DNA of 29,838 nt, from positions 1 to 29,838 of the IMG/VR virus record IMGVR_UViG_3300038701_000879; one strand, given 5' to 3'. This document shows, in pieces, positions 1 to 29,838 of the stretch. Origin of the DNA: a virus. The notes under the pieces were generated by a model. The model was not told the origin of the DNA, did no database searches, and saw only the letters and a list, made by a program, of their open reading frames with translations. The position numbers were made by a program, and so were the translations under genes. The number at the start of each line of letters is the position of its first letter. Within the stretch, counting starts at the first letter, position 1.

Positions 1-693
1 AGACATTGCATTTTTAACCAAAGCAAACGCACCGACAAGAACCGCCAAAATTGCACCGATAGGCGTCGCAATAAAAGCAATTGAAGCTTTTGTCATTCCC
101 AGCATACCGTTCGCCATTCCTTTCAAAGAAGAAGTAAAAAGTTTCCCAGTTCCACCAGCTTCAGCCGAACGCTGAATGAAGCCGCCTATTCCGCCATTCA
201 TAATATTTATTTCGCTAAAGGCTGACTTGATTCCTTGTTCGTATTCGCCTATTTTATCCTTCGAACCGTTGAATTCAGAAGATTGTTCACGCAAAGCTTC
301 TGTCTGATTGTCTATTGCTTCATTCAATTGTTCACGAAGCGCAATTTCTTCTTCAGTATTACCGACAATATTCTTCGAAATTTGATTCAACTGGCTTCGA
401 CTGTCACGAAGTTCTTGCGTCGATTTGTTTTCGGTTGACATTGTCTTTGTTAAATCCTTGTTTGCAGCGTCTAAAGCTGAAGCAAAGCTTTGATTGTCAC
501 GGTAAGCTTTACTTAAATTTTTAAGTTCAGCTTCGTTCTTCGCATAAGCAAGACGACCTTGTTCCGTTGACTGGTCAAGTTCTTTTTGCGCTTTTTTTAA
601 GTCTTGAATTTGCTTCTTGTATTCCGCCGACTTTTTAATTACTTCATTGAAGTCGATTGATAAACTTGCAATATTAATTTTTTCCGCTGCCAT
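1..693 (-). CDS. Tape measure protein, N-terminal part (continues at 29838-27775)
   Basis: First 231 codons of the tail tape measure protein, which sets tail length and occupies the tail lumen. The start is the ATG at 693, 12 bp after the stop of the upstream tail gene at 705. The first ~150 residues are charged and predicted coiled coil (many K, E, Q). A long hydrophobic stretch follows from about residue 190, with Ala/Ile/Val/Gly-rich sequence ending in the KNAM tetrapeptide. The frame runs off the window edge, but bases 4-128 equal 29713-29837 and the frame is preserved there, so the full protein is about 875 residues (565 + 2063 nt = 876 codons). Where the copies diverge, the codon at 1-3 gives Ser and the other copy gives Asn. 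Confidence 0.88.
   Translation of the reverse strand, partial: MAAEKINIASLSIDFNEVIKKSAEYKKQIQDLKKAQKELDQSTEQGRLAYAKNEAELKNLSKAYRDNQSFASALDAANKDLTKTMSTENKSTQELRDSRSQLNQISKNIVGNTEEEIALREQLNEAIDNQTEALREQSSEFNGSKDKIGEYEQGIKSAFSEINIMNGGIGGFIQRSAEAGGTGKLFTSSLKGMANGMLGMTKASIAFIATPIGAILAVLVGAFALVKNAMS
4..128. repeat. Terminal direct repeat, left copy (circular closure)
   Basis: Bases 4-128 are identical to 29713-29837 over 125 bp. The copies diverge at bases 2-3 on one side and at base 129 on the other (window end T). Both lie inside the tape measure gene, whose frame is kept across the join, so this is best read as a circular or circularly permuted genome of 29,709 bp rather than a true duplication. 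Confidence 0.88.
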
Positions 694-704
694 ATCTTAA
701 ATTT

Positions 705-3341
705 TTAATTCGGGTTAAATTGTCCTTCATAATAGTCGCCTATTGTAACAACAAGGTTCACAGTGTCTTCGTCCGTTGCGCCGTATTCGTCAGTCACAAC
801 CAATTTCAAAACATACGTTCCCACGTAGTCAGGGTCATTCGGAACTTCAAGCGTTGCGTTCGGTGAATTTATATTTGATGTCAAAACCGTTTCAGGAATT
901 GCCCCGCCGTTTAACGACGGTTGTGACTGTATTGACCACACAAAAGAAACAATGTCACCAGTGTAATCGTATGAAGCCGCACCCGTTACATTAAAATAAA
1001 CTGGGTAATCTTGAAATTCTTCAGGATATAAACCTTTTGTTTGGTCGTTTCCAGCGTTTGCGTTCGGCGGTTGATTAACCAGTTCAATAACGTTCGCCGT
1101 AAGCGTGCCAATTTCTGAAGAATATTGACCAGAACCAGCGTCGGCAATTGTGAAAGTCCAGCTTTCAGAATATGCGTCAAGCCCGCCCAATGCGTCAAAT
1201 ATTTTCAAGTCAAGGTCTTCAAATAATATTTCAGTTTCCGAAGTTATATCAACACCAGCTTGTCTAAGAATTAAATTTGAATTAAACCCTGACAAGAATT
1301 TTATCTTTAAAGCTGGGTCAAGTTCTGGGTCGAAATAACCGTTCAATAAGTTTGCAGCCGTGACCGTTCTTGTTGAATCGTGCGACATACTAAAAGAATA
1401 ACTTCCTACTTGTGAAGGCGGTTGATTTACTGGGAATTTTGCAATTTCAATCATAACCGCTTTTGACAATTTTTCTGGTGTGTGCGTCACACTATTCAGA
1501 TAATAAAAACGCCCCGTTTGCTTCATATATTTTAACCTGAAGAAATCAAGGTTAAAAATATCAACAAGCGTCAAATTCAAACTGAATTCAACTTCACGAA
1601 AGTCATTAATCAACGATTGAAACGCTTTGTAATAATTACCCAGAAAATAAGTCATTGACATATTTTCAAGCGAAAGAAAAGGAACGTCTTCGGTTACGTT
1701 TATCGGTGTCACCTCACTAAAAAGCTTCACGTTTACCGAAGTGTCAATTCTTTTTATTCTCATTGTTTTAATAGGCGTTTCTTTATTTTCAACAATACCG
1801 TCTTTCAATTCCCAGATAGGAATTGAATAAACGTTTTCACCGCCTAAAGTTCCCGACTTATTTGGTATTTCAAAAATACTGGTGAACATTGTTTTTTCAA
1901 TTGAAGTGTTTTCGTTTTCAATTAACATTTCACCGTCATTGTTTGGAACGACAATTTCTTCAGGATATTGATACGAAGCTTTATTTATTTGAGCATATCC
2001 AGAAACATAATTTTCTTTTTTAATCTCTTTCAGCTTTTGCGTCCAGTCTTCAGCGTTACCCCTATCATTCAACAAAGCTTCAATTTGCGTAAATCTATAA
2101 TCTGAAGTGTTTCTTATTGGGTTTAATACTAAACCATACCGACGAATTACATCTTTAATAAAGTCAAGTTGATTCGTGTCGCCAATATAATCAACAACTT
2201 TAATCAATTGACCGCCTTCCTGAAGAAAAAGTTGACCGCTTACACTTACATTGTAGTTAATTTGATAATATGTAGGTTGATTGTTGTAACCGTCATAATA
2301 AGGGTCGTAAGGGTCATAATAATTCCCTATGTCTTCATTCCCGTAATCTGAAGAACCGTTCACCCAGAAAGAAACTTCGTCACCAACTTGAACCGAAAAA
2401 GTGACTGAAATTGTTTTCGTTCCGCCACCTGAATCGCTTTGACTTGCAAGGTATAAATAAGCCCTTGACACCCCGTTTATTTTAACCCTAAATTGCAAAT
2501 AAGTGCTATATGAAGAATAATTTATTGTTAAGTTAAATTTGTAAGTCCCAGCAACCGAAAAGACAATCTTATTACCTAAATAAGAAGCCCCAGTCAACGC
2601 CCCTGAAGGCGTGAATTCTTTTTCAAATGTTATGTATGAAGTTGCAGTTCTGTATTCTGAAAGCGTGTTTGTTGAAGTCGTTCCTTTTGACGTGCTTGTG
2701 AACGCAGTGTCTTCAACGTCATACCCCTTGACTGGTGTCACAACTTCTGTTAAATACTTTTCGTTTGTGCTAAAAAAAGAACCTACCAAATTAAGCCCGT
2801 TTGATTCAAATATTTTTCTGAATAACGTGTGCGTATAAATTGAAGGTGCAATCTTTTCAGCTTTAACCGAAGAAGAAAGACCCAGACCGAAATTCGCAAG
2901 ACCATAAATAAAACCTTCAGTATGTGAAAAACTGTCAACAACTTCTTGCGACGTCAAAATATGGTCAAGGTCTGAAAGTTCCAAATCTGAAAGCGTTTTT
3001 CCCTTCAACCTTTCACCTAAATCAACAACACCGTCATAAACATTTATTTCAAAAAATTCAGTCGTTGAACTTATTACAACATAACCGTTTATCACAAGCG
3101 GAATTCCGTCAACAATATAGTCAGCAACAACGTTTTCAAAAGGCTTTCGGCTTACATTACCAATTACCCCCAGCATATCAAGAATTTGCGTGTTTCTTGT
3201 TGTTCTGGGAAGCTTTATTGAATAAGAATAAGTTGACTTTCGTGAAGCAATGTCACCGATGTCACCGATTTGAATTTTTCTTGTAATTGGCTTCGGAAAT
3301 AAATCAACTACATTTTTATTTAAAAATAATTGTTCAGCCAT
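705..3341 (-). CDS. Large tail/baseplate protein with C-terminal PKD-like domain
   Basis: 878-residue protein between the 370-residue tail protein and the tape measure gene, so most likely a tail-tip or baseplate component (Tal-like). The N-terminal ~150 residues look like a structured hub domain (MAEQLFLNKNVVDLFPK start). The middle (about residues 220-370) is Ser/Thr/Gly/Tyr-rich beta sequence, including a Tyr/Asp-rich loop near 340-355. From about residue 650 there are two Ig/cadherin/PKD-like units, each introduced by a VNQPP or NQPP motif. The last has the PKD hallmarks NANAGNDQ, IVSFVWS and YVLKLVVTDEYG. Such domains usually bind carbohydrate or stabilise exposed virion proteins; that role here is inferred. 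The gene starts 4 bp after the upstream stop, indicating tight coupling. Confidence 0.7.
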   Translation of the reverse strand: MAEQLFLNKNVVDLFPKPITRKIQIGDIGDIASRKSTYSYSIKLPRTTRNTQILDMLGVIGNVSRKPFENVVADYIVDGIPLVINGYVVISSTTEFFEINVYDGVVDLGERLKGKTLSDLELSDLDHILTSQEVVDSFSHTEGFIYGLANFGLGLSSSVKAEKIAPSIYTHTLFRKIFESNGLNLVGSFFSTNEKYLTEVVTPVKGYDVEDTAFTSTSKGTTSTNTLSEYRTATSYITFEKEFTPSGALTGASYLGNKIVFSVAGTYKFNLTINYSSYSTYLQFRVKINGVSRAYLYLASQSDSGGGTKTISVTFSVQVGDEVSFWVNGSSDYGNEDIGNYYDPYDPYYDGYNNQPTYYQINYNVSVSGQLFLQEGGQLIKVVDYIGDTNQLDFIKDVIRRYGLVLNPIRNTSDYRFTQIEALLNDRGNAEDWTQKLKEIKKENYVSGYAQINKASYQYPEEIVVPNNDGEMLIENENTSIEKTMFTSIFEIPNKSGTLGGENVYSIPIWELKDGIVENKETPIKTMRIKRIDTSVNVKLFSEVTPINVTEDVPFLSLENMSMTYFLGNYYKAFQSLINDFREVEFSLNLTLVDIFNLDFFRLKYMKQTGRFYYLNSVTHTPEKLSKAVMIEIAKFPVNQPPSQVGSYSFSMSHDSTRTVTAANLLNGYFDPELDPALKIKFLSGFNSNLILRQAGVDITSETEILFEDLDLKIFDALGGLDAYSESWTFTIADAGSGQYSSEIGTLTANVIELVNQPPNANAGNDQTKGLYPEEFQDYPVYFNVTGAASYDYTGDIVSFVWSIQSQPSLNGGAIPETVLTSNINSPNATLEVPNDPDYVGTYVLKLVVTDEYGATDEDTVNLVVTIGDYYEGQFNPN

Positions 3342-3345
3342 TTTT

Positions 3346-4458
3346 TTAAAGTTTTGCAGTGATTAAGTCAGGTAAATTCACGGTCAAAATAAATTCTTGA
3401 TTCCCTTTCTTATTCTTGAATTCAAAAGTTTCTTCAATTCTTACATCAACAAAAACACCTTCCTTGTTCGGTGTTCTTGAAGTGTAATATTGAATCAAAG
3501 GCGAATAAAAAAGGCTTCGAATTTGCTTTGCTTCATTTTCATCGCACTTCGTTTTTATCTTTAAAGACCTTGAAGCGGTCTTGCCTATGCTTTTGAATCC
3601 AGAATCAAAACTTCCTACATTATTGAAAGTATTGCTATTTATTAAATCAATGTCCTTGCCTTTTATCTTTTCAGTTGTGAATTCATCAAATAACCAATGC
3701 GAAAACCCGCCTTCAGAATTCCACCATTTCAAATAAACACCAGAACAAGGCTTCTTTTTCTTCAAATAAACATTTGACCTGAATTCGCCGTCTTCATAAA
3801 TTTCAAGATTATTAACACCCGTGTTCAATGGAAGTAAACCGCTTAACGTCCAGTTTTCCGAATTACTTCTGTCAATATTAAACCTAAAAGCCCCCGTGAA
3901 GTCAGGTGTTATGTCTGGCGTTTCAACTTGATTGTTTAGGTTTTTAACCCTTATTTTTTTTGAAGCTGAATAAACAACCCTTTGAATATCGAAATGAAAC
4001 GGGAAGCCTTCAAAATAAGTCAAATAAAAATCAATTCCGTTGTCTGATTTACAAAGCAACTGAAAATGGTTTTCAAAAACACTTTCGTCAATTTGTTTAA
4101 CCGACTTGAAAAATTCATAATTCTTCGCAAAGCTTTCAGAAGTCGTTTCATTGAACACCTCAACAACAATCGACTGAAGCAAATAAAGCCCTGAAATGCT
4201 TTTGAAAAATGCGTTCGTAAAAAAATTCGTGTCACCGAACCCGTTTTGATTCAACACGGTCTTGACCGCTTCTTTTAAATTAAACAAATACCTTCCTTCT
4301 GAATTTGGAAAAATTGTAAATGTATTCGGAAACAATGACGCTGGCAAAACAGTAACTTCAGCCCTATCGTTGCCAATTAAAGAAGACGTGAATTCAATGA
4401 ATGAATCGTTGTAAGCTGGGTAAATTCCCGAAGGTTCTTTTATTATTGTTATAGCCAT
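3346..4458 (-). CDS. Tail protein, distal-tail (Dit)-like candidate
   Basis: 370-residue protein beginning MAITIIKEPSGIYPAYNDSF, rich in beta-strand-like alternating hydrophobic sequence and without membrane segments. I do not recognise a specific domain. Position supports a tail role: it follows two connector-sized genes and precedes the large tail-tip protein and the tape measure. Its size and place just before the hub-like protein fit a distal tail or minor tail protein. Near residue 230 there is a basic run (YLKKKKPCSG) followed by an aromatic segment (VYLKWWNSEGG), possibly a surface loop. Start ATG at 4458 is preceded by an A/T-rich leader and lies 3 bp from the previous stop. The functional name is inference from synteny only. 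Confidence 0.5.
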   Translation of the reverse strand: MAITIIKEPSGIYPAYNDSFIEFTSSLIGNDRAEVTVLPASLFPNTFTIFPNSEGRYLFNLKEAVKTVLNQNGFGDTNFFTNAFFKSISGLYLLQSIVVEVFNETTSESFAKNYEFFKSVKQIDESVFENHFQLLCKSDNGIDFYLTYFEGFPFHFDIQRVVYSASKKIRVKNLNNQVETPDITPDFTGAFRFNIDRSNSENWTLSGLLPLNTGVNNLEIYEDGEFRSNVYLKKKKPCSGVYLKWWNSEGGFSHWLFDEFTTEKIKGKDIDLINSNTFNNVGSFDSGFKSIGKTASRSLKIKTKCDENEAKQIRSLFYSPLIQYYTSRTPNKEGVFVDVRIEETFEFKNKKGNQEFILTVNLPDLITAKL

Positions 4459-4461
4459 AAT

Positions 4462-4917
4462 TTAAACGTTTTTTGCAAGAACTTCAAGTTCCGCCCTAAT
4501 TTCTGTTATTATTCTATTTACATTTAATTTCGCAACCCTATCAATTATTTTATTGATACGTTGCGGCGTGATTACTTCTTCATAAATTTTCAATGCGTTT
4601 TCTTGCTTCGTTCCTTCCTTCGCAATCTTTTTCGCAATAGCCCACGCAAGCCCCCTGACTGACTGATTTTTTTTAAAGGACTTTATTCCCCTTATTTTTA
4701 ACCAGCTTAAAATTGCGGCGACTGGCGGCATTTTTCCCGCTTTACGTCCCGCAAGATAAACAAAGCCCCGAATCGTTCCCTTGTTTGGCTCATATATCGC
4801 TTCAAGCCCTTTTCCGAATTCCCCTGAAGCCTTCTTGCCAGAAGCTTCGTAAAGCTTTCTTATATCGCTTAAAATAGCGTCAATTTCTTCATGTATTATT
4901 TTGTCGTCTTCAGACAC
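4462..4917 (-). CDS. Small tail-completion/connector protein (gp10-like candidate)
   Basis: 151-residue, basic, mostly helical protein. It has a central segment GRKAGKMPPVAAILSWLKIR followed by a Lys-rich stretch and RGLAWAIAKKIAKEGT. The combination of a P-P-V-x-A-I-x-x-W-L-K segment and RxLAxAIAKKIxxEGT is common in small proteins next to tail terminators in tailed phages (HK97 gp10-like or similar neck/tail completion proteins). The start shares a base with the stop of the upstream 137-residue gene, so the pair is translationally coupled. No enzymatic motif is seen. Role assigned by size, composition and position. Confidence 0.45.
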   Translation of the reverse strand: MSEDDKIIHEEIDAILSDIRKLYEASGKKASGEFGKGLEAIYEPNKGTIRGFVYLAGRKAGKMPPVAAILSWLKIRGIKSFKKNQSVRGLAWAIAKKIAKEGTKQENALKIYEEVITPQRINKIIDRVAKLNVNRIITEIRAELEVLAKNV

Positions 4918-5330
4918 TATTCTTCAATTGTTATGTTATACGAAACAATAAGCCCGTCGAAATTGTAATCAAAAGCATTTATCACTTCAATTGTTCGCCA
5001 AAGATTAAACGTAACTTCTTGACCGCAACGAATTGTTTCTTTAATTGTTGCAACCGCTGAATCAATAAGCGGTTTAATATGGTTTTGATAGCGTGCGTCA
5101 TAACTTTCTTCGTCAATATCTGAAGAAACCAGAACCATAAAGTCGCCTGAATAAATTTTTCCTTCAATTACATTCATATCATTGACGACGTCTTCAATTA
5201 TTACGGGGTCAAGAAATAAGTGCGGGACGTTTTTTTGTTCAACCTCATTGTAAAGGTTTTGAAAATCCCTTCTTGCATAAACAAAAGGGAAACTTTCAGC
5301 CGTGCAAATTGTTTTTAAAATATCATACAT
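4917..5330 (-). CDS. Putative tail terminator / head-tail joining protein
   Basis: 137-residue acidic protein. The length, mixed alpha/beta pattern and C-terminal sequence of alternating strands (FNLWRTIEVIN, DGLIVSYNITIEE) fit small tail terminator proteins that cap the tail tube and join it to the head. It overlaps the upstream gene by 8 bp and the downstream gene by 1 bp, inside the cluster leading to the tail genes. The start ATG at 5330 lies within the final codons of the upstream reading frame. No catalytic motif visible. An alternative is another neck component. Confidence 0.42.
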   Translation of the reverse strand: MYDILKTICTAESFPFVYARRDFQNLYNEVEQKNVPHLFLDPVIIEDVVNDMNVIEGKIYSGDFMVLVSSDIDEESYDARYQNHIKPLIDSAVATIKETIRCGQEVTFNLWRTIEVINAFDYNFDGLIVSYNITIEE

Positions 5331-6035: not shown

Positions 6036-6043
6036 TCATATTT

Positions 6044-12135: not shown

Positions 12136-12641
12136 AGTTTTGAAATTTTAACCGACCCGAATCCAGTGTCGCCCCTTTCGTTTTCACAATACCTTTTAAA
12201 TAAATCTGGTTTGCTTAAAATGTACTTTCGTATAATTTTAAACTTTATATTTCCGTCAATCTGGGCTTGTTTCGCAAGGTCTTTTATTACATTCCTATCA
12301 ACCCCAGAAGAATCGTTTGTGAATTTTTGTTGCGCCCCGAACGGTGTCAAATTCACGTTTATCATATAAATAAATCTTGCGTAAACCAAGTCAGCAAGAA
12401 AGGCTTTAATTCCGTCGTGAATATACACTTCACCTTCATAAGTGAATTCAGAACCGTTTAAAAGGTCGGCGTAATTCGCTTCGTCCTTATTTTTTAAAAC
12501 GTCGAAATAAAACCCTTTTAAAGCGTCTTGAAGGTCTGACCCTTGCGCCAACGCAATAGCTTCAGAAAGCTTTTCAGAATCAACCTTCTTCGAAATATTC
12601 CTTAAAGCGACAAATTCCGCTTCTGTTATTAAATTAGCCAT
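12132..12641 (-). CDS. Head-tail connector / adaptor protein
   Basis: 169-residue soluble, helical protein immediately after portal, overlapping it by 8 bp. It begins MANLITEAEFVALRNISKKV, continues with helices that include DALKGFYFDVLKNK, has a beta hairpin-like FTYEGEVYIHDGIK, and then a long helical core (AFLADLVYARFIYMINVN). Early helical TEAEF/IAL segments with a core 'LxDLVYARFI' helix are typical of adaptor proteins that dock onto the portal and open the head-tail channel in Bacteroidota phages (DUF6712-like). The family assignment is from memory and was not searched. Position is the strongest evidence. Confidence 0.6.
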   Translation of the reverse strand: MANLITEAEFVALRNISKKVDSEKLSEAIALAQGSDLQDALKGFYFDVLKNKDEANYADLLNGSEFTYEGEVYIHDGIKAFLADLVYARFIYMINVNLTPFGAQQKFTNDSSGVDRNVIKDLAKQAQIDGNIKFKIIRKYILSKPDLFKRYCENERGDTGFGSVKISKL

Positions 12642-13971
12642 TTGTTTCGGTGTTTTTAATTTCTGGGTTTCCTAACATTTCAGCCGCAATTTCTTCGCTG
12701 AAACCGTAAATATTAACAATCATTGCAACGCCCGCTTCTTTAGTCGTTGTCTTCGCTGAAACTGATTGCTGAATTGCAAGCAAAGCAGTAACACCACCCA
12801 CAGACCCCCGAAGGGTTGCTTGCGCTTCAGCGTTTACGTCTTTCGGTGTTTCATCAACTTTAACTTCTTCATACGGGTTTAAAATTTTCAGCCCCTCAAC
12901 TGGCTTTTGAAATTTCTTCATTAACATAACAAAAACTTCTTCAATCTGGTCACGGTCTTCTTCTCTACTTTCAAACAATTGCTTCTTTGCTTCTTTTAAA
13001 ACTTCGCCACTATTCCCGAACATTGAATTGTCTGAAGGGTTCACAAGTATCAAAGGAACGCCGCAAGCTTTGCAAATATTCTTTTCGGCTTGCGAATCCG
13101 AATATTCAAAAAGCTTGTCATTATAAGGCGAAGAAAGGTCGTCGATTTTTATTTGCTTCGAAAGGTCGTCGGTTTGTTGCGAAGCTTCAAGAAGAACCAC
13201 TTCTGAAGAATTGTCAGCACCCCGAACCCCGTTCAATTCTTTCTTAAAGTCACGACGGTCTTCGTCACTTGCGAACGGTTGAGTTGTTAACAATTTAGTG
13301 TTAAGAAAGCCTTTTTCTGAACCTCGACTTCTGAATGTTTGCGAATTACCTTCAAGAAGTGCTTCGCTTAAAACTGGGTTTAAATCGGTTAAAGAGTAAA
13401 CAAAGGCTTCGTCTTTCTTTATATGAATCAATTGACCGTTATAATTACTAATGTCGCCGCCAGCGGCTTCAATTTGCTTTTCAATTACTTTTTGTTTAGG
13501 GTTAAACCTATCAATTACCGTGAAGCTTGAAGACATAATCTTTGACCCTTTTGACTTATCCCAATTATCATAAATAATAAACTTCCCTGAATAACCTTTG
13601 TCGTCGTCTTTTCCGACCCTAACGTGTGTAACTGGTATAACAACAATCGCTTTAAAATCAAAGTTCCCGTCATAACTTACTTGAATGTAACAATTATTGT
13701 GTTTTGCGTATTCACGTGCCGCAACCCTCAACACTTCGTTCAGTGTTTGACCTTTTGAGTTTACAATAATATTTCCCAGTTTCCCGAAAGAATTCCCGTA
13801 AATAGCTTTTGCAACCCTATCAATACAAGTCTTTGAAGTTACCGAAATGTTAATCAACGCTTCAACCAAAGAAGGGAAGGCGTTGTCTTTTCCAAAATTG
13901 AAACACTCATTCCTTTTGTCTTTCTTGACGTCAAGAATTGTTTTCGAAACCTGATTATAATATAATTTCAT
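12634..13971 (-). CDS. Portal protein
   Basis: 445-residue portal that forms the dodecameric DNA channel at one capsid vertex and docks the terminase. The N-terminal region (residues ~30-110) contains FPSLVEALINISVTSKTCID and a Tyr/Asn-rich strand NCYIQVSYDGNFDFKAIVVI. The middle contains the clip/stem-like FEYSDSQAEKNICKACGVPL followed by NPSDNSMFGNSGEVLKEAKK. That 'Ixxa.gVPp.Lv....fgNs.e' arrangement is the conserved stem-loop region of portals. It is a little shorter than most HK97-type portals. It lies downstream of a strong minus-strand terminator hairpin (13984-14014), which may limit its level relative to capsid. Confidence 0.88.
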   Translation of the reverse strand: MKLYYNQVSKTILDVKKDKRNECFNFGKDNAFPSLVEALINISVTSKTCIDRVAKAIYGNSFGKLGNIIVNSKGQTLNEVLRVAAREYAKHNNCYIQVSYDGNFDFKAIVVIPVTHVRVGKDDDKGYSGKFIIYDNWDKSKGSKIMSSSFTVIDRFNPKQKVIEKQIEAAGGDISNYNGQLIHIKKDEAFVYSLTDLNPVLSEALLEGNSQTFRSRGSEKGFLNTKLLTTQPFASDEDRRDFKKELNGVRGADNSSEVVLLEASQQTDDLSKQIKIDDLSSPYNDKLFEYSDSQAEKNICKACGVPLILVNPSDNSMFGNSGEVLKEAKKQLFESREEDRDQIEEVFVMLMKKFQKPVEGLKILNPYEEVKVDETPKDVNAEAQATLRGSVGGVTALLAIQQSVSAKTTTKEAGVAMIVNIYGFSEEIAAEMLGNPEIKNTETNG

Positions 13972-15456: not shown

Positions 15457-16371
15457 TTAAACCGACAAAGTGAATTCAACAATTTCTTCAGGATTCACGA
15501 TTGTAACGCCCGCTTTTCCTTTTGAACGCATATAAACCTTGTCGTCAGTTTCGTCGTACCAAATTTTCATAATGTTTTCTTCTTCGGTAACGTCAGAACC
15601 AACAACGAAAGAAGAACCACGACCCGCAAACATTCTGTCTGTTCCGTCAAGCCCGTAAATTCTTTGTAAAGTTCCACGTGAACCACCGATTTTTAAAACA
15701 CCGTTGTCGTGTTCAGCGTCATAATGATACAAGTTTGCAGCTTTTTGAGCAGCAATATACAAGTCAAAAACGTCGTCACCCACTGCAATCACAAGTTCGC
15801 CCGAACGTTTCACTTTCGCTGGTGAAGCCACATACATAGCATCAACCAAATCAATAACGTTCGCTTTTGTGATAGTGGTCGCCGCTGAAGTGTTTCCGTC
15901 AATTGCAACGCCTGAAGCGTCAATCAATTTAATGAACCCGTCAAATAACGTGTAAGTTCCGCCCGTGTCACCTTGCCAGTAAGTTAATTCAAGGGTTTCT
16001 TGAATTGCCGACACTTTTGTTTCAACGATTTTTTCTTCCCAGCCAGCGGGTGCGTCGTTGTTACTTGAACCGGGCGCAAGAACCATATTCGGGAATTTTG
16101 TCTGAAGGTCGTCTTCACAAAATCCTTCAAAAACAGTGAAAGGCTTCACTTCGATAAATACTTCAGTAATATCGGTGTCACCTGAAGGCGTCTTGCAATT
16201 ACCCGCTTGCAAAGTTGCGCTTGTTCCGATATGCGGAACGCTTGTTTTTCCTTTCACCCCAGCCATAAAGCGGGCGAATTTTCCAGTGTCGCCACCAGCG
16301 AAAAGCGTTGCAGTCAAAAATTCATTTGCCCTTGCAACGTAGTCAGTAAAATTGGTTACATCGTAAGCCAT
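15457..16371 (-). CDS. Major capsid protein
   Basis: 304-residue protein directly downstream of the head protease/scaffold gene, the usual place for the capsid subunit. It starts MAYDVTNFTDYVARANEFLT, has a Gly/Thr-rich segment (HIGTSATLQAGNCKTPSG) and then a region with KPFTVFEGFCEDDLQTKFP. A long acidic helix follows, with the beta-rich domain of the C-terminal half (GELVIAVGDDVFDLYIAAQ, IGGSRGTLQRIYGLDGTD). No Lys-rich core domain was recognised that would name an HK97 subfamily; the fold is inferred from context. No cleavage site could be identified, although the upstream protease suggests maturation cleavage of scaffold or capsid N-terminus. Confidence 0.8.
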   Translation of the reverse strand: MAYDVTNFTDYVARANEFLTATLFAGGDTGKFARFMAGVKGKTSVPHIGTSATLQAGNCKTPSGDTDITEVFIEVKPFTVFEGFCEDDLQTKFPNMVLAPGSSNNDAPAGWEEKIVETKVSAIQETLELTYWQGDTGGTYTLFDGFIKLIDASGVAIDGNTSAATTITKANVIDLVDAMYVASPAKVKRSGELVIAVGDDVFDLYIAAQKAANLYHYDAEHDNGVLKIGGSRGTLQRIYGLDGTDRMFAGRGSSFVVGSDVTEEENIMKIWYDETDDKVYMRSKGKAGVTIVNPEEIVEFTLSV

Positions 16372-23371: not shown

Positions 23372-23406
23372 AAAAAAAATACGTCAATTCTTCTGGCGTT
23401 TTTTTT
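23372..23406 (+). terminator. Terminator after the small HTH gene
   Basis: A-run then ACGTCA (23381-23386) pairs with TGGCGT (23394-23399) allowing one G-U pair, extended by A/U pairing, and followed by a run of eight T. It ends the one-gene HTH unit before the promoter at 23421-23428. Confidence 0.75.
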
Positions 23407-23420
23407 AACTTCATTTAGTT

Positions 23421-23428
23421 TAATATTG
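23421..23428 (+). promoter_or_regulatory. Candidate -7 box close to the SSB-tail zinc protein start
   Basis: TAATATTG differs from TAnnTTTG at one position and ends only 4 bp before the ATG at 23433. Transcription starting the usual few bases downstream would give a leaderless or nearly leaderless mRNA. Confidence 0.5.
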
Positions 23429-23432
23429 TACT

Positions 23433-23888: not shown

Positions 23889-23901
23889 AATTTTAAACCT
23901 T

Positions 23902-24198: not shown

Positions 24199-24625
24199 AA
24201 CATATACAATCAAATCAAAGGACGTTTGCGCCGTATGGGTGTTTAAATACCAGCTTGACGGTGAACTTCGTTCTTTTGAAGTTCTTGACGGTTCTTTCAC
24301 TGTTAAACAAGCTGACTGGTTATTCAGGGGCGGGCGTTTCCCTTACAATGAAGAAATTATGAAGAAATGGTTGACTTATTTTAAAAAATATTTTGAAATT
24401 GAAGTCGGTATTCCTGAAATAACCTTTGATTATTTTTACGAAATTTACGGCAAGAAAAGAACCAAGTCTGAAACAAAAAAGTTCTGGTCAAAAATGACGT
24501 CTAAAGACAGAACGCTTGCGGTTCTGGGTGTTAAGCGTTACTTAAATATTTGTAAACTTGACAATCGTTCGCCAGTTGACCCGATTCGCTATTTAAGAAA
24601 CCGTCGTTTTGAAGACGAATACTAA
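24185..24625 (+). CDS. Replisome-organiser-like protein (replication initiation)
   Basis: 146-residue protein. The N-terminal ~75 residues are beta-like (TYTIKSKDVCAVWVFKYQLD) with an aromatic GGRFPYNEE helix. The C-terminal region (ITFDYFYEIYGKKRTKSETK, WSKMTSKDRTLAVLGVKRYL, PVDPIRYLRNRRFEDEY) matches the C-terminal domain of many phage replication proteins: 'FYxxYxxKxxKxxTxxxWxkLxxxDRxxAxxxxxxYL...P..YLrnrrf'. That domain recruits or loads the host helicase. No ATPase motif is present. With the DnaA-like protein, MazG and SSB nearby, this is the best candidate replication initiator/organiser. Confidence 0.65.
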   Translation: MNEFKTYTIKSKDVCAVWVFKYQLDGELRSFEVLDGSFTVKQADWLFRGGRFPYNEEIMKKWLTYFKKYFEIEVGIPEITFDYFYEIYGKKRTKSETKKFWSKMTSKDRTLAVLGVKRYLNICKLDNRSPVDPIRYLRNRRFEDEY

Positions 24626-24636
24626 AATTTAAAACT

Positions 24637-24735
24637 ATGAAATCAATATTAAAATCAATTATTAAATTCTTTGTCGAACTAAATAAAAAACTTGAACCTT
24701 ATGGAAAAGCCGCAGCCGAAGCAATTAAACGATAA
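24637..24735 (+). CDS. 32-residue amphipathic micro-protein
   Basis: Starts ATG at 24637 behind AAAATTTAAAACT, the recurrent leader of this genome; stop at 24735. The peptide begins MKSILKSIIKFFVELNKKLE and is an amphipathic helix with a basic face. It overlaps the start of the next gene by 35 bp. It may be a real micro-protein or a leader that couples translation to the downstream ATG at 24701. Confidence 0.45.
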   Translation: MKSILKSIIKFFVELNKKLEPYGKAAAEAIKR

Positions 24736-25057
24736 TCTTAAAAGCGTTTGCGAATTGTGCTTCGACAACTTTCTTGAAGAAGAACACATTCCTTCTGGAC
24801 GCTCAAAGATTTACGACATACTTTCTGAAGGCAATTACATAAACCTTTCAAATAAGGAAAAAAAAGAATACTATGAAAAAGCCCGAACAATCTTGACCGC
24901 TGAAGAAATGAAGAAGCCAGACAAACAAAGAAAGCTTTATTTGCTTTCAGGAAACCGTTCTTTATTTATTTCATTCAAAGCAAAGGTTTTAATTCTTGAA
25001 GACTACTTTGCAAGGATTGACGCCAACGGTAAACATTTAAAAGAAATATTAATCTAA
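24701..25057 (+). CDS. Hypothetical protein
   Basis: 118-residue protein beginning MEKPQPKQLNDNLKSVCELC. It has a Cys pair (CELC) near residue 17-20 and is then mostly charged helix (NKEKKEYYEKARTILTAEEM), ending with a hydrophobic helix (LFISFKAKVLILEDYF). No domain recognised. The ATG at 24701 is preferred; a TTG 9 bp upstream (24692) is in frame but weaker. It lies in the replication cluster, so it may assist initiation. Confidence 0.55.
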   Translation: MEKPQPKQLNDNLKSVCELCFDNFLEEEHIPSGRSKIYDILSEGNYINLSNKEKKEYYEKARTILTAEEMKKPDKQRKLYLLSGNRSLFISFKAKVLILEDYFARIDANGKHLKEILI

Positions 25058-25068
25058 AATCAATAATT

Positions 25069-25401
25069 ATGAAACACCCTATTCGAACAACTATCTTTTC
25101 ATTTTACGGTATTATTGCCGTAGTTTTAATACTTAAAGTATTTAACGTCATTCATTTAAGCTGGTTAATTTTAGCTTCACCGTTTTTAATTGGCTTATTT
25201 ATTTTTGTTGCTTACATTGCGACGCTTTTAATCTGGTCTTACGTTCACCACAAAAGAGAAATGAAACGTATTTCTGAAGAAGAACTTAACACCGAAACAA
25301 GCTTTTTTTGTCACGGTTGCGCCAGACCTTTCGACAAACCAGTGAAGCACCTTAAAGGCGAATCAATTTATCATAAACATTGCACACCTAAACAAAGATA
25401 A
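25069..25401 (+). CDS. Membrane protein with C-terminal zinc-ribbon-like domain
   Basis: 110-residue protein. Two hydrophobic segments occur at about residues 8-28 (FSFYGIIAVVLILKVF) and 31-57 (WLILASPFLIGLFIFVAYIA). A charged linker and a cytosolic Cys/His cluster follow: C81-x2-C84, His94, His102, His104 and Cys105, in SFFCHGCARPFDKP through KGESIYHKHC. The C-terminus may bind zinc. Two close membrane helices plus a soluble finger could dock phage or host factors at the membrane, but the role is unknown. The ATG is preceded by ATAATT. Confidence 0.6.
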   Translation: MKHPIRTTIFSFYGIIAVVLILKVFNVIHLSWLILASPFLIGLFIFVAYIATLLIWSYVHHKREMKRISEEELNTETSFFCHGCARPFDKPVKHLKGESIYHKHCTPKQR

Positions 25402-25403
25402 CT

Positions 25404-25661
25404 ATGAAAAAAAAATCAAGAAGAACACAACCAGCTTCAACAATTAGAAAAACCACTTTTAAAGAAAGAAATCACGGCTTGACGCCAGCCGAAAAAGTTA
25501 TTGCCGAAGCACCTATTGAAGCAATTGTTAACGAATACAATTTAATTCAACAAAAGAAATCAAAGCTTTCAAAACACCTTCGGGACGTCGTCGAACTGAA
25601 GGTTCAATTTTTAATCAAGGAAGGTAAAATCAAAAACCAGCCTTCCAATGTTAAAGAATAA
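25404..25661 (+). CDS. Hypothetical basic protein
   Basis: 85-residue protein with a strongly basic start (MKKKSRRTQPASTIRKTTFK), a segment HGLTPAEKVIAEAPIEAIV and a C-terminal charged helix (SKLSKHLRDVVELKVQFLIK). No domain recognised; the basic N-terminus suggests nucleic-acid contact. It begins 2 bp after the preceding stop and overlaps the next gene by 14 bp. Confidence 0.55.
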   Translation: MKKKSRRTQPASTIRKTTFKERNHGLTPAEKVIAEAPIEAIVNEYNLIQQKKSKLSKHLRDVVELKVQFLIKEGKIKNQPSNVKE

Positions 25662-25872
25662 AAAACGAATTGACGACATAATCAAAGAACACGACCCGAA
25701 AAGCTTCGAAGTTAGTGTTCGTACAATTGCCGACGTTCCGACAAAATGGTCAAGGTTTTTTCCTTATGATGATGCGGCAATTAAATTGATTTATCAAAGT
25801 AAAATTATTGACGGGGTCAAGATAAAATTCAGATACACGACCCTTATTATTAACGCCAGACATAGGCAATAA
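25648..25872 (+). CDS. Hypothetical small protein
   Basis: 74-residue protein. It starts MLKNKKRIDDIIKEHDPKSF and ends with a basic strand (RYTTLIINARHRQ). It has a strand-like centre (VSVRTIADVPTKWSRFFPYD) but no recognised domain. It overlaps the previous gene by 14 bp and is followed by a short gap before the MazG-like gene. Its size and basic C-terminus would suit a nucleic-acid-associated factor, without direct evidence. Confidence 0.5.
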   Translation: MLKNKKRIDDIIKEHDPKSFEVSVRTIADVPTKWSRFFPYDDAAIKLIYQSKIIDGVKIKFRYTTLIINARHRQ

Positions 25873-25883
25873 AACCATTTTAA

Positions 25884-26219
25884 ATGAAAACAGAACACGA
25901 AAGTTTAACCGTTCAAGAATCAATGTTTCAATATCTTGAAGAAAAGGTTATCAAATGGGCTGAAGAAAAAGGAATTCTTCAGAAAGCAACCAAAATGAAA
26001 CAAGGAATAAAAACCCTTGAAGAAGTTAACGAACTTCTTGCAGCTATTCACGACAACAACGAACCTGAAATTGTTGACGCACTGGGTGACATTTTAGTCA
26101 CTATAATCATTCAGGCTGAAATGAACGGTTTAAAATTAACCGACTGTCTTGAATCCGCTTACAATGTTATTGCAAAGCGTTCAGGAAAAATGATAAACGG
26201 CGAATTTAAAAAGGACTAA
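25884..26219 (+). CDS. MazG-like nucleotide pyrophosphohydrolase
   Basis: 111-residue all-helical enzyme that would hydrolyse (d)NTPs to monophosphates, changing nucleotide pools or alarmone levels during infection. The core at residues 44-70 matches the EExxE...ExxD motif: TLEEVNELLAAI (Glu46, Glu47, Glu50), then PEIVDALGDILVTI (Glu62, Asp65, Asp69). After that come a hydrophobic helix (ILVTIIIQAEMNGLKL) and the C-terminal helix with NVIAKRSGKMINGEF, typical of phage MazG-like proteins. Length is that of the short single-domain form. Confidence 0.88.
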   Translation: MKTEHESLTVQESMFQYLEEKVIKWAEEKGILQKATKMKQGIKTLEEVNELLAAIHDNNEPEIVDALGDILVTIIIQAEMNGLKLTDCLESAYNVIAKRSGKMINGEFKKD

Positions 26220-26221
26220 CA

Positions 26222-26524
26222 ATGAAGAACGGTGTCGCCTTAATTGCAAAGGAACGGTTGAAACAAATTGAAAAATATGGCTTCACCGTTCAGCATTACG
26301 AAAACAATCCTGAATTATACCACAAGAAACAATTGCAGCAATGCGCCGTTTCTTTGCTGGTTCACGAACTACCCAGTTACGGCGAAGCTGACAAGCATAT
26401 TCCCGAAGGCTGGAATCAAGACTGGTTTATTAAAATGACAAAGAAACCACTTCTTGAAAGACTTATTATTGCGGGGGCTTTGATAGCTTCAGAAATTGAC
26501 AGAATTGAAAAAATAAACCAATGA
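26222..26524 (+). CDS. Conserved phage hypothetical protein (IAKERxxQIEKYG type)
   Basis: 100-residue protein starting MKNGVALIAKERLKQIEKYG with a FTVQHYENN segment, then EGWNQDWFIKMTKKPLLERL and IIAGALIASEIDRIEK. The early 'IAxERxxQIxKYGxTxxHY' helix and the late 'RLIIAGALIxxEIDRI' helix occur in a recurring family of small phage proteins next to nucleotide-metabolism genes. Its position after MazG fits that, and an all-alpha NTP-pool enzyme fold is possible. I know no confirmed activity. Confidence 0.6.
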   Translation: MKNGVALIAKERLKQIEKYGFTVQHYENNPELYHKKQLQQCAVSLLVHELPSYGEADKHIPEGWNQDWFIKMTKKPLLERLIIAGALIASEIDRIEKINQ

Positions 26525-26787
26525 CAAAAACACAATTGAATTTAGGAATTGAATTGAATCAAAAAATTGAAGCCCTTGAACTTTCACGTTCAAAATATAA
26601 AAGCGGCTTTGATATGATTTGCAATTCAGAAGAACAAAATCAAGAAATCAAGCTTATTGAATTTCACGGACAAATTAATTCTTGTCACGAATTCCCTAAA
26701 CTTGAACTTCAAAAATTGTTCGAATACAGAATCAAGCAAATAGATTTTCAGCTTGAAAAACTTAATCAAAAATTTAATCAATTATAA
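26521..26787 (+). CDS. Hypothetical helical protein
   Basis: 88-residue charged protein (MTKTQLNLGIELNQKIEALE ... IKQIDFQLEKLNQKFNQL). It overlaps the previous gene by 4 bp (ATGA) and precedes SSB by 2 bp. The C-terminal 25 residues form a coiled coil. No domain recognised; the close coupling to SSB suggests co-regulation. Confidence 0.55.
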   Translation: MTKTQLNLGIELNQKIEALELSRSKYKSGFDMICNSEEQNQEIKLIEFHGQINSCHEFPKLELQKLFEYRIKQIDFQLEKLNQKFNQL

Positions 26788-26789
26788 TT

Positions 26790-27215
26790 ATGAGTACATT
26801 AAACAAAGCAATGTTAATCGGTCATTTAGGCGACGACGTCAAAATGCACTATTTCGAAGGCGGCGGGTGTGTTGGTAGATTCCCGCTTGCTACAAATGAA
26901 AGCTACACAAATAAACAAACTGGCGACAAAGTCACTTCGACCGACTGGCATAATATAGTCGTAAGAAACAAGGCGGCTGAAGTTTGTGAAAAATACCTTT
27001 CTAAAGGCGACAAAGTTTACGTTGAAGGCAAGATTAAAACAAGAAAATATCAAGCTGAAGACGGTTCAGACCGATATTCAACAGAAATTCAAGTTGACAA
27101 CTTCAAGTTCTTAACTACAAAAGGAAGTCAAACACCAGATTCAACACAAGGAATCGCACCACAATCAAGCGCAGCTTTAACACCTGAAAGCGAAGACGAC
27201 GACCTTCCTTTCTAA
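26790..27215 (+). CDS. ssb: Single-stranded DNA-binding protein
   Basis: 141-residue OB-fold protein protecting replication and recombination ssDNA. Landmarks are MLIGHLGDDVKMHYFEGGG, FPLATNESYTNKQTGDK, then TDWHNIVVRNKAAEVCEKYL with the conserved Trp53 in the W-H pair. KGDKVYVEGKIKTRKYQAED is the classic SSB strand and loop. The ~30-residue disordered tail ends SEDDDLPF, the SSB-Ct tip that docks partner proteins. It is the final early-unit gene and stops 20 bp before a bidirectional terminator. A second protein (23433) carries a near-identical tip. Confidence 0.95.
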   Translation: MSTLNKAMLIGHLGDDVKMHYFEGGGCVGRFPLATNESYTNKQTGDKVTSTDWHNIVVRNKAAEVCEKYLSKGDKVYVEGKIKTRKYQAEDGSDRYSTEIQVDNFKFLTTKGSQTPDSTQGIAPQSSAALTPESEDDDLPF

Positions 27216-27234
27216 AAATAAAACTTCCAAACAC

Positions 27235-27269
27235 AAAAAAGCCTTCAGATTGATTCTAAAGGCTTTTTT
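27235..27269 (+). terminator. Bidirectional terminator between early and late units
   Basis: AAAAAAGCCTT (27235-27245) pairs with AAGGCTTTTTT (27259-27269), a stem of 11 bp with A and T tails. It terminates the plus-strand early operon and can also serve the minus-strand transcripts ending at the HNH gene, whose final codons (27256-27269) lie within it. Confidence 0.85.
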
Positions 27270-27753
27270 CTTTTTTATGGTATGACCATATATATTTTTT
27301 ATGAAGTCTTCTAATTCCATTGCAACAATTTGTTATTGCTGATTGCGTGAAACCATTTCTTGAAGCTTCGTTTGCTGAATTCCATTCTTTTATAAAATTC
27401 CCTTTTTCGTCATACTGAAAAACTTTCTTGCTCAAAGAATGATTTTTATTTTCAAGACTTGTGACCCACTCTAAATTGTTTACGCAATTATTATTTTTAT
27501 TTTCGTCAATATGATTGACTTCAGGTTTGTTTTCAGGGTTCGGAATAAAGGCTTCAGCAACAAGGCGGTGAATTGAAAATTGAGTTCTTTTTTTATCCTT
27601 ACTCAATCCTACACGGTTATAACCAGAAGAATCAATATTTAACAAGCTTAAAACCCCGCCTGAATAACCTTTTCTTTTTTCGCTTCTTACACGACCCTTG
27701 TCGCTTATTTCGTAAATTTTTTCGTAACCCTTTATTTGCTTCCATTTTTCCAT
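27256..27753 (-). CDS. Free-standing HNH homing endonuclease (NUMOD4-HNH-NUMOD1)
   Basis: 165-residue homing-type nuclease. Residues ~3-45 (EKWKQIKGYEKIYEISDKGR) are NUMOD4-like. The HNH_3 core is at ~60-97: His62-Arg63 (IHRLVAEAFIPN), then VNHIDENKNNNCVNNLEWVT with Asn80, His81, Asp83 and Asn92. The C-terminal DNA-binding region (VFQYDEKGNFIKEWNSANEA ... YIWSY) matches NUMOD1. It sits between the tape measure stop and the early/late terminator, an intergenic spot typical of selfish homing genes. A private TATATTTG box (27758-27765) ends 4 bp before its ATG. Confidence 0.9.
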   Translation of the reverse strand: MEKWKQIKGYEKIYEISDKGRVRSEKRKGYSGGVLSLLNIDSSGYNRVGLSKDKKRTQFSIHRLVAEAFIPNPENKPEVNHIDENKNNNCVNNLEWVTSLENKNHSLSKKVFQYDEKGNFIKEWNSANEASRNGFTQSAITNCCNGIRRLHKKYIWSYHKKEKSL

Positions 27754-27757
27754 AAAG

Positions 27758-27765
27758 CAAATATA
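27758..27765 (-). promoter_or_regulatory. -7 box for the HNH gene, likely leaderless start
   Basis: On the minus strand TATATTTG matches TAnnTTTG and ends 4 bp before the ATG at 27753, so the mRNA would begin at or near the start codon. The box is identical to the late promoter's -7 box (17768-17775). No -33 element was found at a normal distance. Confidence 0.6.
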
Positions 27766-27774
27766 TAAAATATT

Positions 27775-29838
27775 TTATAAACTTGCGTTTTGCTCAATCA
27801 CGTCAACTTTATTCGACACGCTTGAAATTTCATCAACGCCGACAATAGGGTTCGGCAATGACGAAACCGCTTCAGCCGTCTTCGAAGCAAACATTTCATA
27901 ATCAAACAAGCTTTCAGGTTGTGCGCTTGTTCCTAAAATACCACCGTTCGCAAATTTACGACCGCCGCCAGCTTCGTTGATTCTTGAAAGCAAAGGCGCA
28001 AACATTGAAGTTGAACGTTTATTGATAACCGCTTCACCGCCTTCAAGTTCACCGAACGGCGTTTTGATTCCGCCTTGTGCGTGACTTGCGCCCTGAAGAA
28101 GACCGCCCTTTGCGTAAGTTGTTTTTGTCGAAGCTATTTTTGACACGTTAAGAAGCCCCGAAGTAACCGCTAAACCAGCCGCAACAAAACCCAATGTCGG
28201 ACCCACAATCGGAATTCCCGCAAGTGCTTTATACGCCGCAGTTGCCGACTGATATGTTGCAATTGTAGTTTCAGCAATTGCAGCCGCTTTTCCGACCGCA
28301 GTTTGTTCACCCGCAACCGACTTGAACGAAGCAAAAACAGACTGAAAACCTTCAATTTTTGACTGGGTCAAAGCACGGTCAATATTCTTCTGGCGTTCAG
28401 CGTACTTCTTATTTATCAAAGCAACGTCAGCCCCAGTTTTTTCAGCCTTGAAAAGTTCCGCATTTTTGTCAGCTTCAAGTTGTGCCGTTAAAATTTCATA
28501 TTCAGAAGCGTTTTGTTCTTGCATAATAGCAAGCTTGTTTTCAAAGTCAGCGGCTTCTTGTTCCGCTTTCGCTTCTTTTCTTTGTTGTTCCAGTTCTTCG
28601 TTCGCAATTCTGTTTTCTTCATTTACGGCGTTTATAGCGTCGTTGTATTGCGTTTGACTGATAACACCTTCTTCAAGTCTTTTCGCTTCAAATTCCCTTC
28701 TTTGTTCAGCAAGACGTTCAAGGCGGTCACGTTCTTCATTAAACAATTGTTCTGAAAGGAATTTTTCAGAATCAAGCTTTGATTGATTCGCCTGAACATA
28801 AGCTTCAAGTTCCCTTTGTGCGTTGTCAACCGTTAATTCAGCACGCTTCGCAAGAAGGTCGTTTTGAATGTTTAAAAGTTCAGTGTCATATTTTTCTTGA
28901 CTGATTTTCTTCGCCTTTAATTCAGCGTCAAGAATTTCAATCGACTTTCGTGCAACTTCTTCTTCGATTGCAAGTTGTTCTTTCAGGGTTTTTGCACGTG
29001 TCCCTTGTTGAGCAATAAAAAGGTCAAGTTGTTCTTTCTGTTTTTCAATTGCTTTTTCTTGTATTTCACGGTATTTGTCGGCGGCTTCTTTTCGAAGTGC
29101 GTTCAGGTTCGTCAATTGTTCAGATTCTTGACCAGTGATTCGTTCTTGAATGTCTGAAATTGTCGTTAACGCTTCAGCTTGTGCGTCAAGTGTTTCTTTT
29201 GTTTTTCCTTCAGCTTCAATTCTTAAATTTGCAACCGCAAGGGCTTGTTGTGCAATAGCAAGTTCAGCCGCAAGTTGTTCTTTCAATACTTTTCCCAGTT
29301 CGTCATTCGCTTGAATTCTTTCAGAAATTGACTTGCTTTCGTCGTCACGTATTTGACGAAGTTTTTCAGCTTGCTTTTGATAGTCAAGTTGTGTTTTTTG
29401 GGCTATTCTTTGCGCCTTTTCAAGTGCAATTTCAGCTTCAGCCAAGCGTTTTGAAGCTTCAACGCTTTCTTGTATTTCAGAAGTAAACCCACGAAGCGAA
29501 GCCGCTTGTTCGTCAAACCCTAAAAATTCAAGACCTTTCGCAATTGCGTCAAGTGCTTTAAAGATTCCTTTTTCAACCAATTCAAACCCCTTCACAAGTC
29601 CGTCAATTAAGAATTCGCCTAAAGGTTCAAGTATCTTCAGAAGCCCGTTAATAATTCCGCTAAACGCACTAAACGCCTTTTTAATTTTATTCGTTGCCGT
29701 TTCGCTTCGATTCATTGCATTTTTAACCAAAGCAAACGCACCGACAAGAACCGCCAAAATTGCACCGATAGGCGTCGCAATAAAAGCAATTGAAGCTTTT
29801 GTCATTCCCAGCATACCGTTCGCCATTCCTTTCAAAGT
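27775..29838 (-). CDS. Tape measure protein, C-terminal part (continues from 1-693)
   Basis: 688 codons that join in frame to the N-terminal part at 1-693. The hydrophobic segment (SIAFIATPIGAILAVLVGAF) is followed by a coiled-coil stretch of more than 300 residues (ALEKAQRIAQKTQLDYQKQA, many Glu/Lys/Gln). Another hydrophobic region follows (GIPIVGPTLGFVAAGLAVTS). The end is Gly-rich (TYAKGGLLQGASHAQGG, GELEGGEAVINK, FANGGILG). This is the usual order for tape measure proteins of Bacteroidota siphophages. Stop at 27775 leaves 21 bp before the HNH gene. Confidence 0.9.
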   Translation of the reverse strand, partial: TLKGMANGMLGMTKASIAFIATPIGAILAVLVGAFALVKNAMNRSETATNKIKKAFSAFSGIINGLLKILEPLGEFLIDGLVKGFELVEKGIFKALDAIAKGLEFLGFDEQAASLRGFTSEIQESVEASKRLAEAEIALEKAQRIAQKTQLDYQKQAEKLRQIRDDESKSISERIQANDELGKVLKEQLAAELAIAQQALAVANLRIEAEGKTKETLDAQAEALTTISDIQERITGQESEQLTNLNALRKEAADKYREIQEKAIEKQKEQLDLFIAQQGTRAKTLKEQLAIEEEVARKSIEILDAELKAKKISQEKYDTELLNIQNDLLAKRAELTVDNAQRELEAYVQANQSKLDSEKFLSEQLFNEERDRLERLAEQRREFEAKRLEEGVISQTQYNDAINAVNEENRIANEELEQQRKEAKAEQEAADFENKLAIMQEQNASEYEILTAQLEADKNAELFKAEKTGADVALINKKYAERQKNIDRALTQSKIEGFQSVFASFKSVAGEQTAVGKAAAIAETTIATYQSATAAYKALAGIPIVGPTLGFVAAGLAVTSGLLNVSKIASTKTTYAKGGLLQGASHAQGGIKTPFGELEGGEAVINKRSTSMFAPLLSRINEAGGGRKFANGGILGTSAQPESLFDYEMFASKTAEAVSSLPNPIVGVDEISSVSNKVDVIEQNASL
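29713..29837. repeat. Terminal direct repeat, right copy (circular closure)
   Basis: Exact copy of 4-128 offset by 29,709 bp. The last base (29838) is T where the left copy has A, and 29711-29712 are TT where the left copy has GA. The substitutions alter the tape measure codons at the two edges (Ser/Thr and Ser/Asn), consistent with population variants or assembly edges. Confidence 0.88.

What the first reader, a model, noticed from the sequence alone, without database searches (positions are those of the whole stretch)
1..29838. No GATC site seen anywhere in the genome
Scanning every GAT on the plus strand, I found none followed by C. GATC is palindromic, so this covers both strands. With about 37% GC, about 100 sites would be expected in 29.7 kb, and GAT itself is frequent. 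Such complete loss is a classic sign of long-term restriction by a GATC-specific system (MboI/Sau3AI/DpnII-like) or of a methyl-directed defence in the host. No phage methylase is visible. My count is by eye.
Basis: seen in the sequence. Interest (0 to 1): 0.75.

Follow-up and report, generated by a model that had tools for sequence, protein, structure and literature searches.

The report
Phage genome purged of restriction sites
This marine-type bacterial virus has no GATC site at all, but that is one entry in a long list of erased words: it has also lost about ten other short palindromes and, contrary to what has been reported for phages, many two-part sequences of the kind read by Type I-like restriction enzymes, so its genome looks like a record of its hosts' DNA-cutting defences.

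Summary
Confirmed: GATC occurs 0 times (100 expected by base composition, 74 first-order, 27 second-order Markov, 48 by synonymous-codon shuffling). It is not alone: CGCG, GGCC, CTAG and CCNNGG are at 0 copies; CCGG, CATG, CCNGG, GGNCC, CTNAG and GGNNCC at 1. Wider gaps are normal. Codon choice points to selection on the word: Asp before C is GAC 68 times of 68, while Asn before C is AAT/AAC 48/47.

The larger result: bipartite words with 4-9 bp gaps are also purged (CAN8TG 13 vs 112; CCAN7TC 0 vs 28; GAAGN6TA 3 vs 35). There are 60 such 3+2 words, against a mean of 0.29 (maximum 3) in 200 codon shuffles. The effect holds in held-out halves of the genome and vanishes at gaps of 10 or more. Of the 50 strongest, 48 carry A...T 8-10 bp apart (background 14%), the adenine geometry of Type I/IIB enzymes. 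Relatives show it with partly different words; sampled host chromosomes do not. Rusinov et al. 2018 reported no Type I avoidance in phages.

Best reading: long exposure to many host restriction systems, Type II plus bipartite adenine systems; no phage methylase was found. The host is unknown. A tenfold loss of GAG/CTC is unexplained.

The parts
1..29838 (.). Whole genome: zero GATC, CGCG, GGCC, CTAG and CCNNGG; one copy each of CCNGG, GGNCC, CTNAG and GGNNCC
   Evidence: Exact counts against Markov and codon-shuffle expectations
1..29838 (.). Whole genome: depletion of bipartite words with 4-9 bp gaps carrying A..T 8-10 bp apart (CAN8TG, AGN6CT, CCAN7TC, GAAGN6TA, AGCN5CT, CAGN6TA, GAAN7TAA and others)
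   Evidence: Gap-resolved scans, shuffles, held-out halves, A..T geometry
1..29838 (.). Whole genome: GAG/CTC at 49 copies (538 first-order, 320 codon null), GGAG/CTCC at 0; cause unknown
4890..4893 (.). The only CATG
16070..16073 (.). The only CCGG; also present in the 95%-identical contig L084
6044..7228 (-). Terminase large subunit, used to find relatives
   Evidence: Pfam Terminase_3 and Terminase_3C; relatives
12634..13971 (-). Portal protein, used to find relatives and related prophages
   Evidence: Weak Pfam Phage_portal match, below its cut-off; 36% identical to the annotated portal of phi46:1
15457..16371 (-). Probable major capsid protein (named from gene order; no Pfam match)
   Evidence: Conserved in relatives; no Pfam family

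Best explanation
The genome has been purged, largely through codon choice, of the recognition sites of many host restriction-modification systems. Shown: about 11 Type II-like palindromes are at 0-1 copies; bipartite words with 4-9 bp gaps are strongly depleted, and nearly all of the strongest carry A and T 8-10 bp apart; codon choice avoids the words; relatives carry partly different forbidden words; sampled host chromosomes do not avoid the bipartite words. Inferred: the palindromes are targets of Type II enzymes, and the bipartite words are targets of Type I or the related Type IIB/IIG enzymes, which methylate an adenine in each half on opposite strands. Unmodified phage DNA is cut on entry, so genomes with fewer sites survive; the set of missing words reflects the hosts the lineage has met. 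The phage appears to rely on this and not on a methylase of its own or a known anti-restriction protein.
For: Counts and nulls for palindromes. Spacing controls: CC..GG 1, 1, 0 at gaps 0-2 and 33 at gap 4; CA..TG 13 at gap 8 and 62-122 at the other gaps from 1 to 12. Asp before C: GAC 68, GAT 0. Bipartite words: 60 hits vs mean 0.29, max 3 in 200 shuffles; held-out halves o/e 0.45 and 0.30 against 0.96-1.03 for control gaps; none to one hit at gaps 10-21. A..T at 8-10 bp in 48 of the top 50, background 14%; A(8)T is the most depleted of 160 base-pair/distance combinations in four genomes. Relatives with different sets. Prophage versus its own host chromosome in Tenacibaculum soleae. HsdS domains in 96 of 150 Flavobacteriaceae, DpnII-type enzymes in a few. 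No phage methylase.
Against: The window's host is unknown and no methylome or matched enzyme links any word to a real system. The 4-base bipartite words (CAN8TG, AGN6CT) are shorter than ordinary Type I sites, so one system per word does not explain them simply. Published work found no Type I avoidance in phages (PMC6286503). GAG loss is not explained. Comparison with G009 uses words chosen for being rare in the window.
Confidence: 0.8

Rival explanations
1. A single GATC-specific restriction system, or a methyl-directed GATC defence, explains the finding.
For: GATC = 0; DpnII-type enzymes occur in Flavobacteriaceae.
Against: Explains one of about 11 missing palindromes and none of the bipartite words.
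Confidence: 0.03
2. Only orthodox Type II restriction acted. The gapped words are Type II interrupted palindromes or by-products of them, and Type I or IIB enzymes played no part.
For: Some gapped words are palindromic (CAN8TG, AGN6CT); interrupted-palindrome Type II sites exist, and the scan finds CCN7GG and GCN7GC, which I know as BslI and MwoI sites, in L033, L034 and L041.
Against: Many purged words are not palindromic (CCAN7TC, GAAGN6TA, CAGN6TA, GAAN7TAA), and nearly all carry A..T at 8-10 bp with no excess of C..G or G..C in the window.
Confidence: 0.1
3. The missing words reflect a mutational bias or genome signature of phage or host, not restriction.
For: Flavobacteriaceae chromosomes mildly under-use GGCC and CCGG, and the sampled chromosome of G044 strongly lacks CATG and GGCC.
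Against: Host GAG is normal; T. soleae's chromosome keeps GATC and CATG while its prophage has none, and shows no depletion of the prophage's bipartite words; replacing bases differ by context; a mutational process with a fixed 4-9 bp gap and an A..T requirement is not known to me; closely related phages differ in their sets.
Confidence: 0.05
4. The depletion of GAG/CTC (and of CGA in G003 and G011) comes from a separate defence with a three-base target, for instance a nickase or a backbone-modification system.
For: Loss in all frames and on both strands, not in host chromosomes, replaced by different bases in different contexts.
Against: No such system was identified in any host; a literature search gave no GAG precedent.
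Confidence: 0.3

Closest known systems
Restriction-site avoidance in dsDNA phages (Rusinov et al. 2018, PMC6286503)
   Same: Complete or near-complete loss of short Type II palindromes, GATC among them.
   Different: That survey found no avoidance of Type I and IIG sites; here bipartite words with Type I-like geometry are heavily purged. It tested sites of recorded hosts; here no host is needed.
Type I restriction-modification systems and BcgI-like Type IIB/IIG relatives (PMC3874165)
   Same: Bipartite targets with gaps of about 4-8 bp and an adenine methylated in each half on opposite strands, matching the gap range and the A..T spacing of the purged words.
   Different: These are the inferred enzymes and not the object found. 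Some purged words (CAN8TG, AGN6CT) specify only four bases, fewer than usual Type I sites. CCAN7TC equals what I remember as the CjePI site.
Cellulophaga phage phi46:1
   Same: Nearest cultured relative by terminase (46%); lacks GATC, GGCC and CCGG and shows the A..T gapped depletion.
   Different: Its bipartite words are its own (o/e about 1.0 in the other genomes); GAG and CGCG are normal in it; it carries an annotated integrase.
Prophage of Tenacibaculum soleae UCD-KL19 (G015/L108)
   Same: 61% portal identity; GATC, CATG, GGCC, CCGG and CCAN7TC at 0.
   Different: Integrated; its bipartite words are largely different from the window's (o/e 1.13 for window words); GAG only about halved.

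Membership tests
Restriction-site avoidance, Type II sites | Recognition words far below composition- and codon-based expectation | tested here: met
Restriction-site avoidance, Type II sites | The host carries a restriction enzyme for the avoided word | tested here: inconclusive
   Host unknown; DpnII-type enzymes over the cut-off in 6 of 300 Flavobacteriaceae genomes
Avoidance of Type I/IIB (bipartite adenine) sites | Depletion limited to the gap range of such enzymes | tested here: met
   60 words at gaps 4-9, one at gaps 10-21
Avoidance of Type I/IIB (bipartite adenine) sites | An A in one half and a T in the other at a fixed separation | tested here: met
   48 of 50 strongest words, background 14%; A(8)T most depleted combination
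Avoidance of Type I/IIB (bipartite adenine) sites | The purged words are methylated or cut by an identified host enzyme | not testable with these tools
   No methylome and no host; HsdS domains in 96 of 150 Flavobacteriaceae only shows that such systems are common
Self-protection by a phage DNA methyltransferase | A DNA methyltransferase gene in the phage | tested here: not met
   No such Pfam or PHROG match; each predicted protein was scanned in at least one of the two libraries, except the fragment at 1-693

The most novel reading that the evidence does not exclude
Phages of this flavobacterial group are under strong, lasting selection by Type I-like bipartite adenine systems, strong enough to erase whole classes of two-part words. 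The forbidden lexicon of a phage can then be read as a list of the Type I/IIB specificities in its host population, and the accepted view that phages do not avoid such sites fails for this group. The three-base loss of GAG (and of CGA in G003 and G011) may mark a further defence with a three-base specificity.
Probability: 0.6. Interest if true: 0.85.

Novelty: new variant of a known kind. Interest (0 to 1): 0.72.

Why it matters
GATC loss alone is ordinary. Wholesale loss of bipartite words with the adenine geometry of Type I enzymes contradicts the published rule that phages do not avoid Type I or IIG sites. It offers a way to infer Type I specificities, and perhaps hosts, from uncultured phage genomes, and it shows how many restriction systems one small phage without a methylase may have had to escape.

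Tried and rejected
GAG loss as a host signature: rejected, Flavobacteriaceae chromosome stretches have GAG o/e 0.86-1.22. GAG loss as codon usage alone: rejected, it is lost in all three frames and on both strands. GAG loss as one mutation type: rejected, the replacing bases differ by context. GAG as a phosphorothioation-type (Ssp) target: idea only, no precedent found. Gapped depletion as an effect of protein sequence: rejected, synonymous shuffles remove it. Hairpins: rejected, many purged words are not self-complementary. CTGC/GCAG orientation bias (3 vs 24) looked like Type III strand bias but relatives do not share it, so it was not pursued. A terminal repeat was missed by the first exact prefix-suffix test, so the 'circular unit' of 29,822 is meaningless; one search found the repeat by alignment, and the counts are not affected. 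No paper on GATC loss in flavobacterial phages was found.

Full report
Observation. GATC is absent from all 29,838 bases. Expected numbers fall from 100 (base composition) to 74 (first order) and 27 (second order), and 48 remain when synonymous codons are shuffled in place. Chance is excluded under every model. Aspartate codons show it most plainly: before a C the phage uses GAC 68 times and GAT never, whereas asparagine before a C is AAT 48 and AAC 47.

More than GATC. The same tests put CGCG, GGCC and CTAG at 0 and CCGG and CATG at 1. The interrupted palindromes CCNGG, GGNCC, CTNAG and GGNNCC are at 1 and CCNNGG at 0. Spacing is an internal control: CC..GG is at 1, 1, 0 for gaps 0-2, 15 at gap 3 and 33 at gap 4; GG..CC is at 0, 1, 1, then 15 and 23. 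AGCT, TCGA, ACGT and TGCA are normal under the codon null. Six of sixteen 4-bp palindromes are effectively gone, the most of 43 phage genomes or fragments compared; that panel is small and was gathered mainly through terminase and portal similarity.

Bipartite words. In the same spacing scan CA..TG is at 13 for gap 8 while the other gaps from 1 to 12 give 62-122, and AG..CT is at 17 for gap 6 against about 68. A scan of two-part words found strong depletion only at short gaps, about 4-9 bp. In the window 60 words of 3+2 bases pass log10 p < -4.5 at gaps 4-9 and one at gaps 10-21. Two hundred codon shuffles give a mean of 0.29 and a maximum of 3, and a best log10 p of -6.5 against -29.5 observed. 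Words were also found in one half of the genome and tested in the other: o/e is 0.45 and 0.30 in the held-out halves, while words found at gaps 12-23 return to 0.96-1.03. A greedy reduction lists CAN8TG (13 of 112), AGN6CT (17 of 85), AGCN5CT 3/51, GAAN7TAA 9/57, CCAN7TC 0/28, GAAGN6TA 3/35, ACN5GTG 1/29 and CAGN6TA 5/37 among others (the two palindromic counts are halved here because that table counts both strands). Many 3+2 words overlap, so 60 is not a number of enzymes.

Adenine geometry. Without choosing any word, among 160 combinations of base pair and distance the most depleted is A followed by T 8 bp later, in the window, G003, G010 and phi46:1. Of the 50 most depleted words 48 contain A..T at 8-10 bp, against 14% of the rest (p about 1e-37); T..A is in none. 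Seven related genomes give 36-47 of 50. Overlap between words makes these p-values optimistic, but the contrast between A..T and every other pair does not depend on that. [quoted passage not shown] BcgI-like Type IIB enzymes share the architecture (PMC3874165). This is the basis for the Type I/IIB reading; the link to an actual enzyme is inferred.

Relatives. The phage belongs to a group with Cellulophaga phage phi46:1 (46% terminase), IMG/VR contigs of about 30 kb and a prophage of Tenacibaculum soleae; 3 of 300 Flavobacteriaceae genomes carry a relative. Forbidden sets differ. L001 (81% terminase) lacks CCGG but has 30 GATC and 44 CGCG; G003 lacks GGCC and CTAG but has 91 CGCG and 85 CCGG; G010 lacks GATC and GGCC, has one CCGG, and has 132 CGCG. 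Window bipartite words have o/e 0.46 in G009 and 0.51 in L001, 0.65-0.78 in G003, G010, G011, G012 and phi46:1, and about 1 in G015, G016, G018 and G020. CCAN7TC is low in most of them. G009 aligns to the window over about 21 kb at 80% identity; of 104 sites of the avoided palindromes in it one is kept in the window, against 219 of 531 control palindromes, and 10 of 117 bipartite sites against 127 of 333. Because the words were picked for being rare in the window, these are illustrations and not independent tests.

Hosts. T. soleae shows the contrast inside one genome: its prophage has GATC 0 of 49 and CATG 0 of 97 expected, its chromosome 185/276 and 324/404; the prophage's bipartite words are at 1.01 in the chromosome, and at 0.64-0.79 in held-out halves of the prophage. 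Sampled host-chromosome stretches give essentially no gapped hits. T. soleae has HsdS domains at three loci; 96 of 150 Flavobacteriaceae genomes have HsdS domains; a DpnII-type enzyme is over the cut-off in 6 of 300. The window's own host is unknown.

Controls. T7 has no A..T excess (11 of 50). The relatives G016 and G020 show no significant gapped depletion, so the effect belongs to some lineages and is not produced by the method. In L033, L034 and L041 the blind scan returns CCN7GG and GCN7GC, which I know as the BslI and MwoI sites.

The phage's own genes. Pfam and PHROG scans gave terminase subunits, a portal match, a Clp-type protease, lysozyme, a Rad52-like protein, an exonuclease, a topoisomerase-like protein, SSB, MazG and HNH endonucleases, and no methyltransferase or known anti-restriction family. 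Ocr-like inhibitors are hard to see by sequence, so an inhibitor is not excluded.

Unexplained. GAG/CTC is at 49 copies against 538 (first order) or 320 (codon null), in every frame and on both strands, and GGAG is at 0. GAG is low in the close relatives G003, G009-G013 (0.05-0.36) but 1.52 in L001; G003 and G011 also lack CGA (0.16-0.17). Host chromosomes are normal. Replacing bases vary by context, so this looks like selection against the word, but no system with this three-base target is known to me in these hosts.

Against the literature. Rusinov et al. 2018 (PMC6286503) state that avoidance is not observed for Type I and Type IIG sites. Their test used sites of R-M systems in recorded hosts; the present scan needs no host and looks for the geometry. 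Searches of the held library found no report of such avoidance, but the library is partial and the searches were few. I therefore call this a new variant of a known kind.

Noticed in passing
window 1-29838: GAG/CTC is about tenfold depleted on both strands and in all frames, and GGAG/CTCC is absent. Relatives range from 0.05 to 1.52 of expectation, while host chromosomes are normal.
   Followed up: partly
G003 (L109/L110) and G011 (L115/L116): CGA/TCG is also strongly depleted in these two relatives (o/e 0.16-0.17).
   Followed up: no
window, e.g. 464-28298: GCAG occurs 24 times on the + strand and CTGC only 3 times, against gene orientation and GC skew; relatives do not share the bias.
   Followed up: partly
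window 4-128 and 29713-29837: Exact 125-bp direct repeat at the contig ends, splitting the tape-measure gene: the contig looks like a complete, circularly closed genome.
   Followed up: partly
window 27256-27753: NUMOD4/HNH endonuclease gene of the homing type next to the tape-measure gene.
   Followed up: no
G044 chromosome (L150, L158-L161): A Flavobacteriaceae genome carrying a distant prophage relative itself lacks CATG (1 vs 257), GGCC (12 vs 195), CTAG (36 vs 350) and GATC (34 vs 248) in 100 kb sampled.
   Followed up: no
L033, L034, L041: Distant phages in which CCN7GG and GCN7GC (BslI- and MwoI-like words) are strongly depleted, alongside an A..T gapped signal like the window's.
   Followed up: no
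L001, 13448 bases: 81% identical terminase, yet GAG is over-represented (1.52) and conserved Glu codons have switched from GAA to GAG (88 of 142): a different word usage at close relationship.
   Followed up: partly
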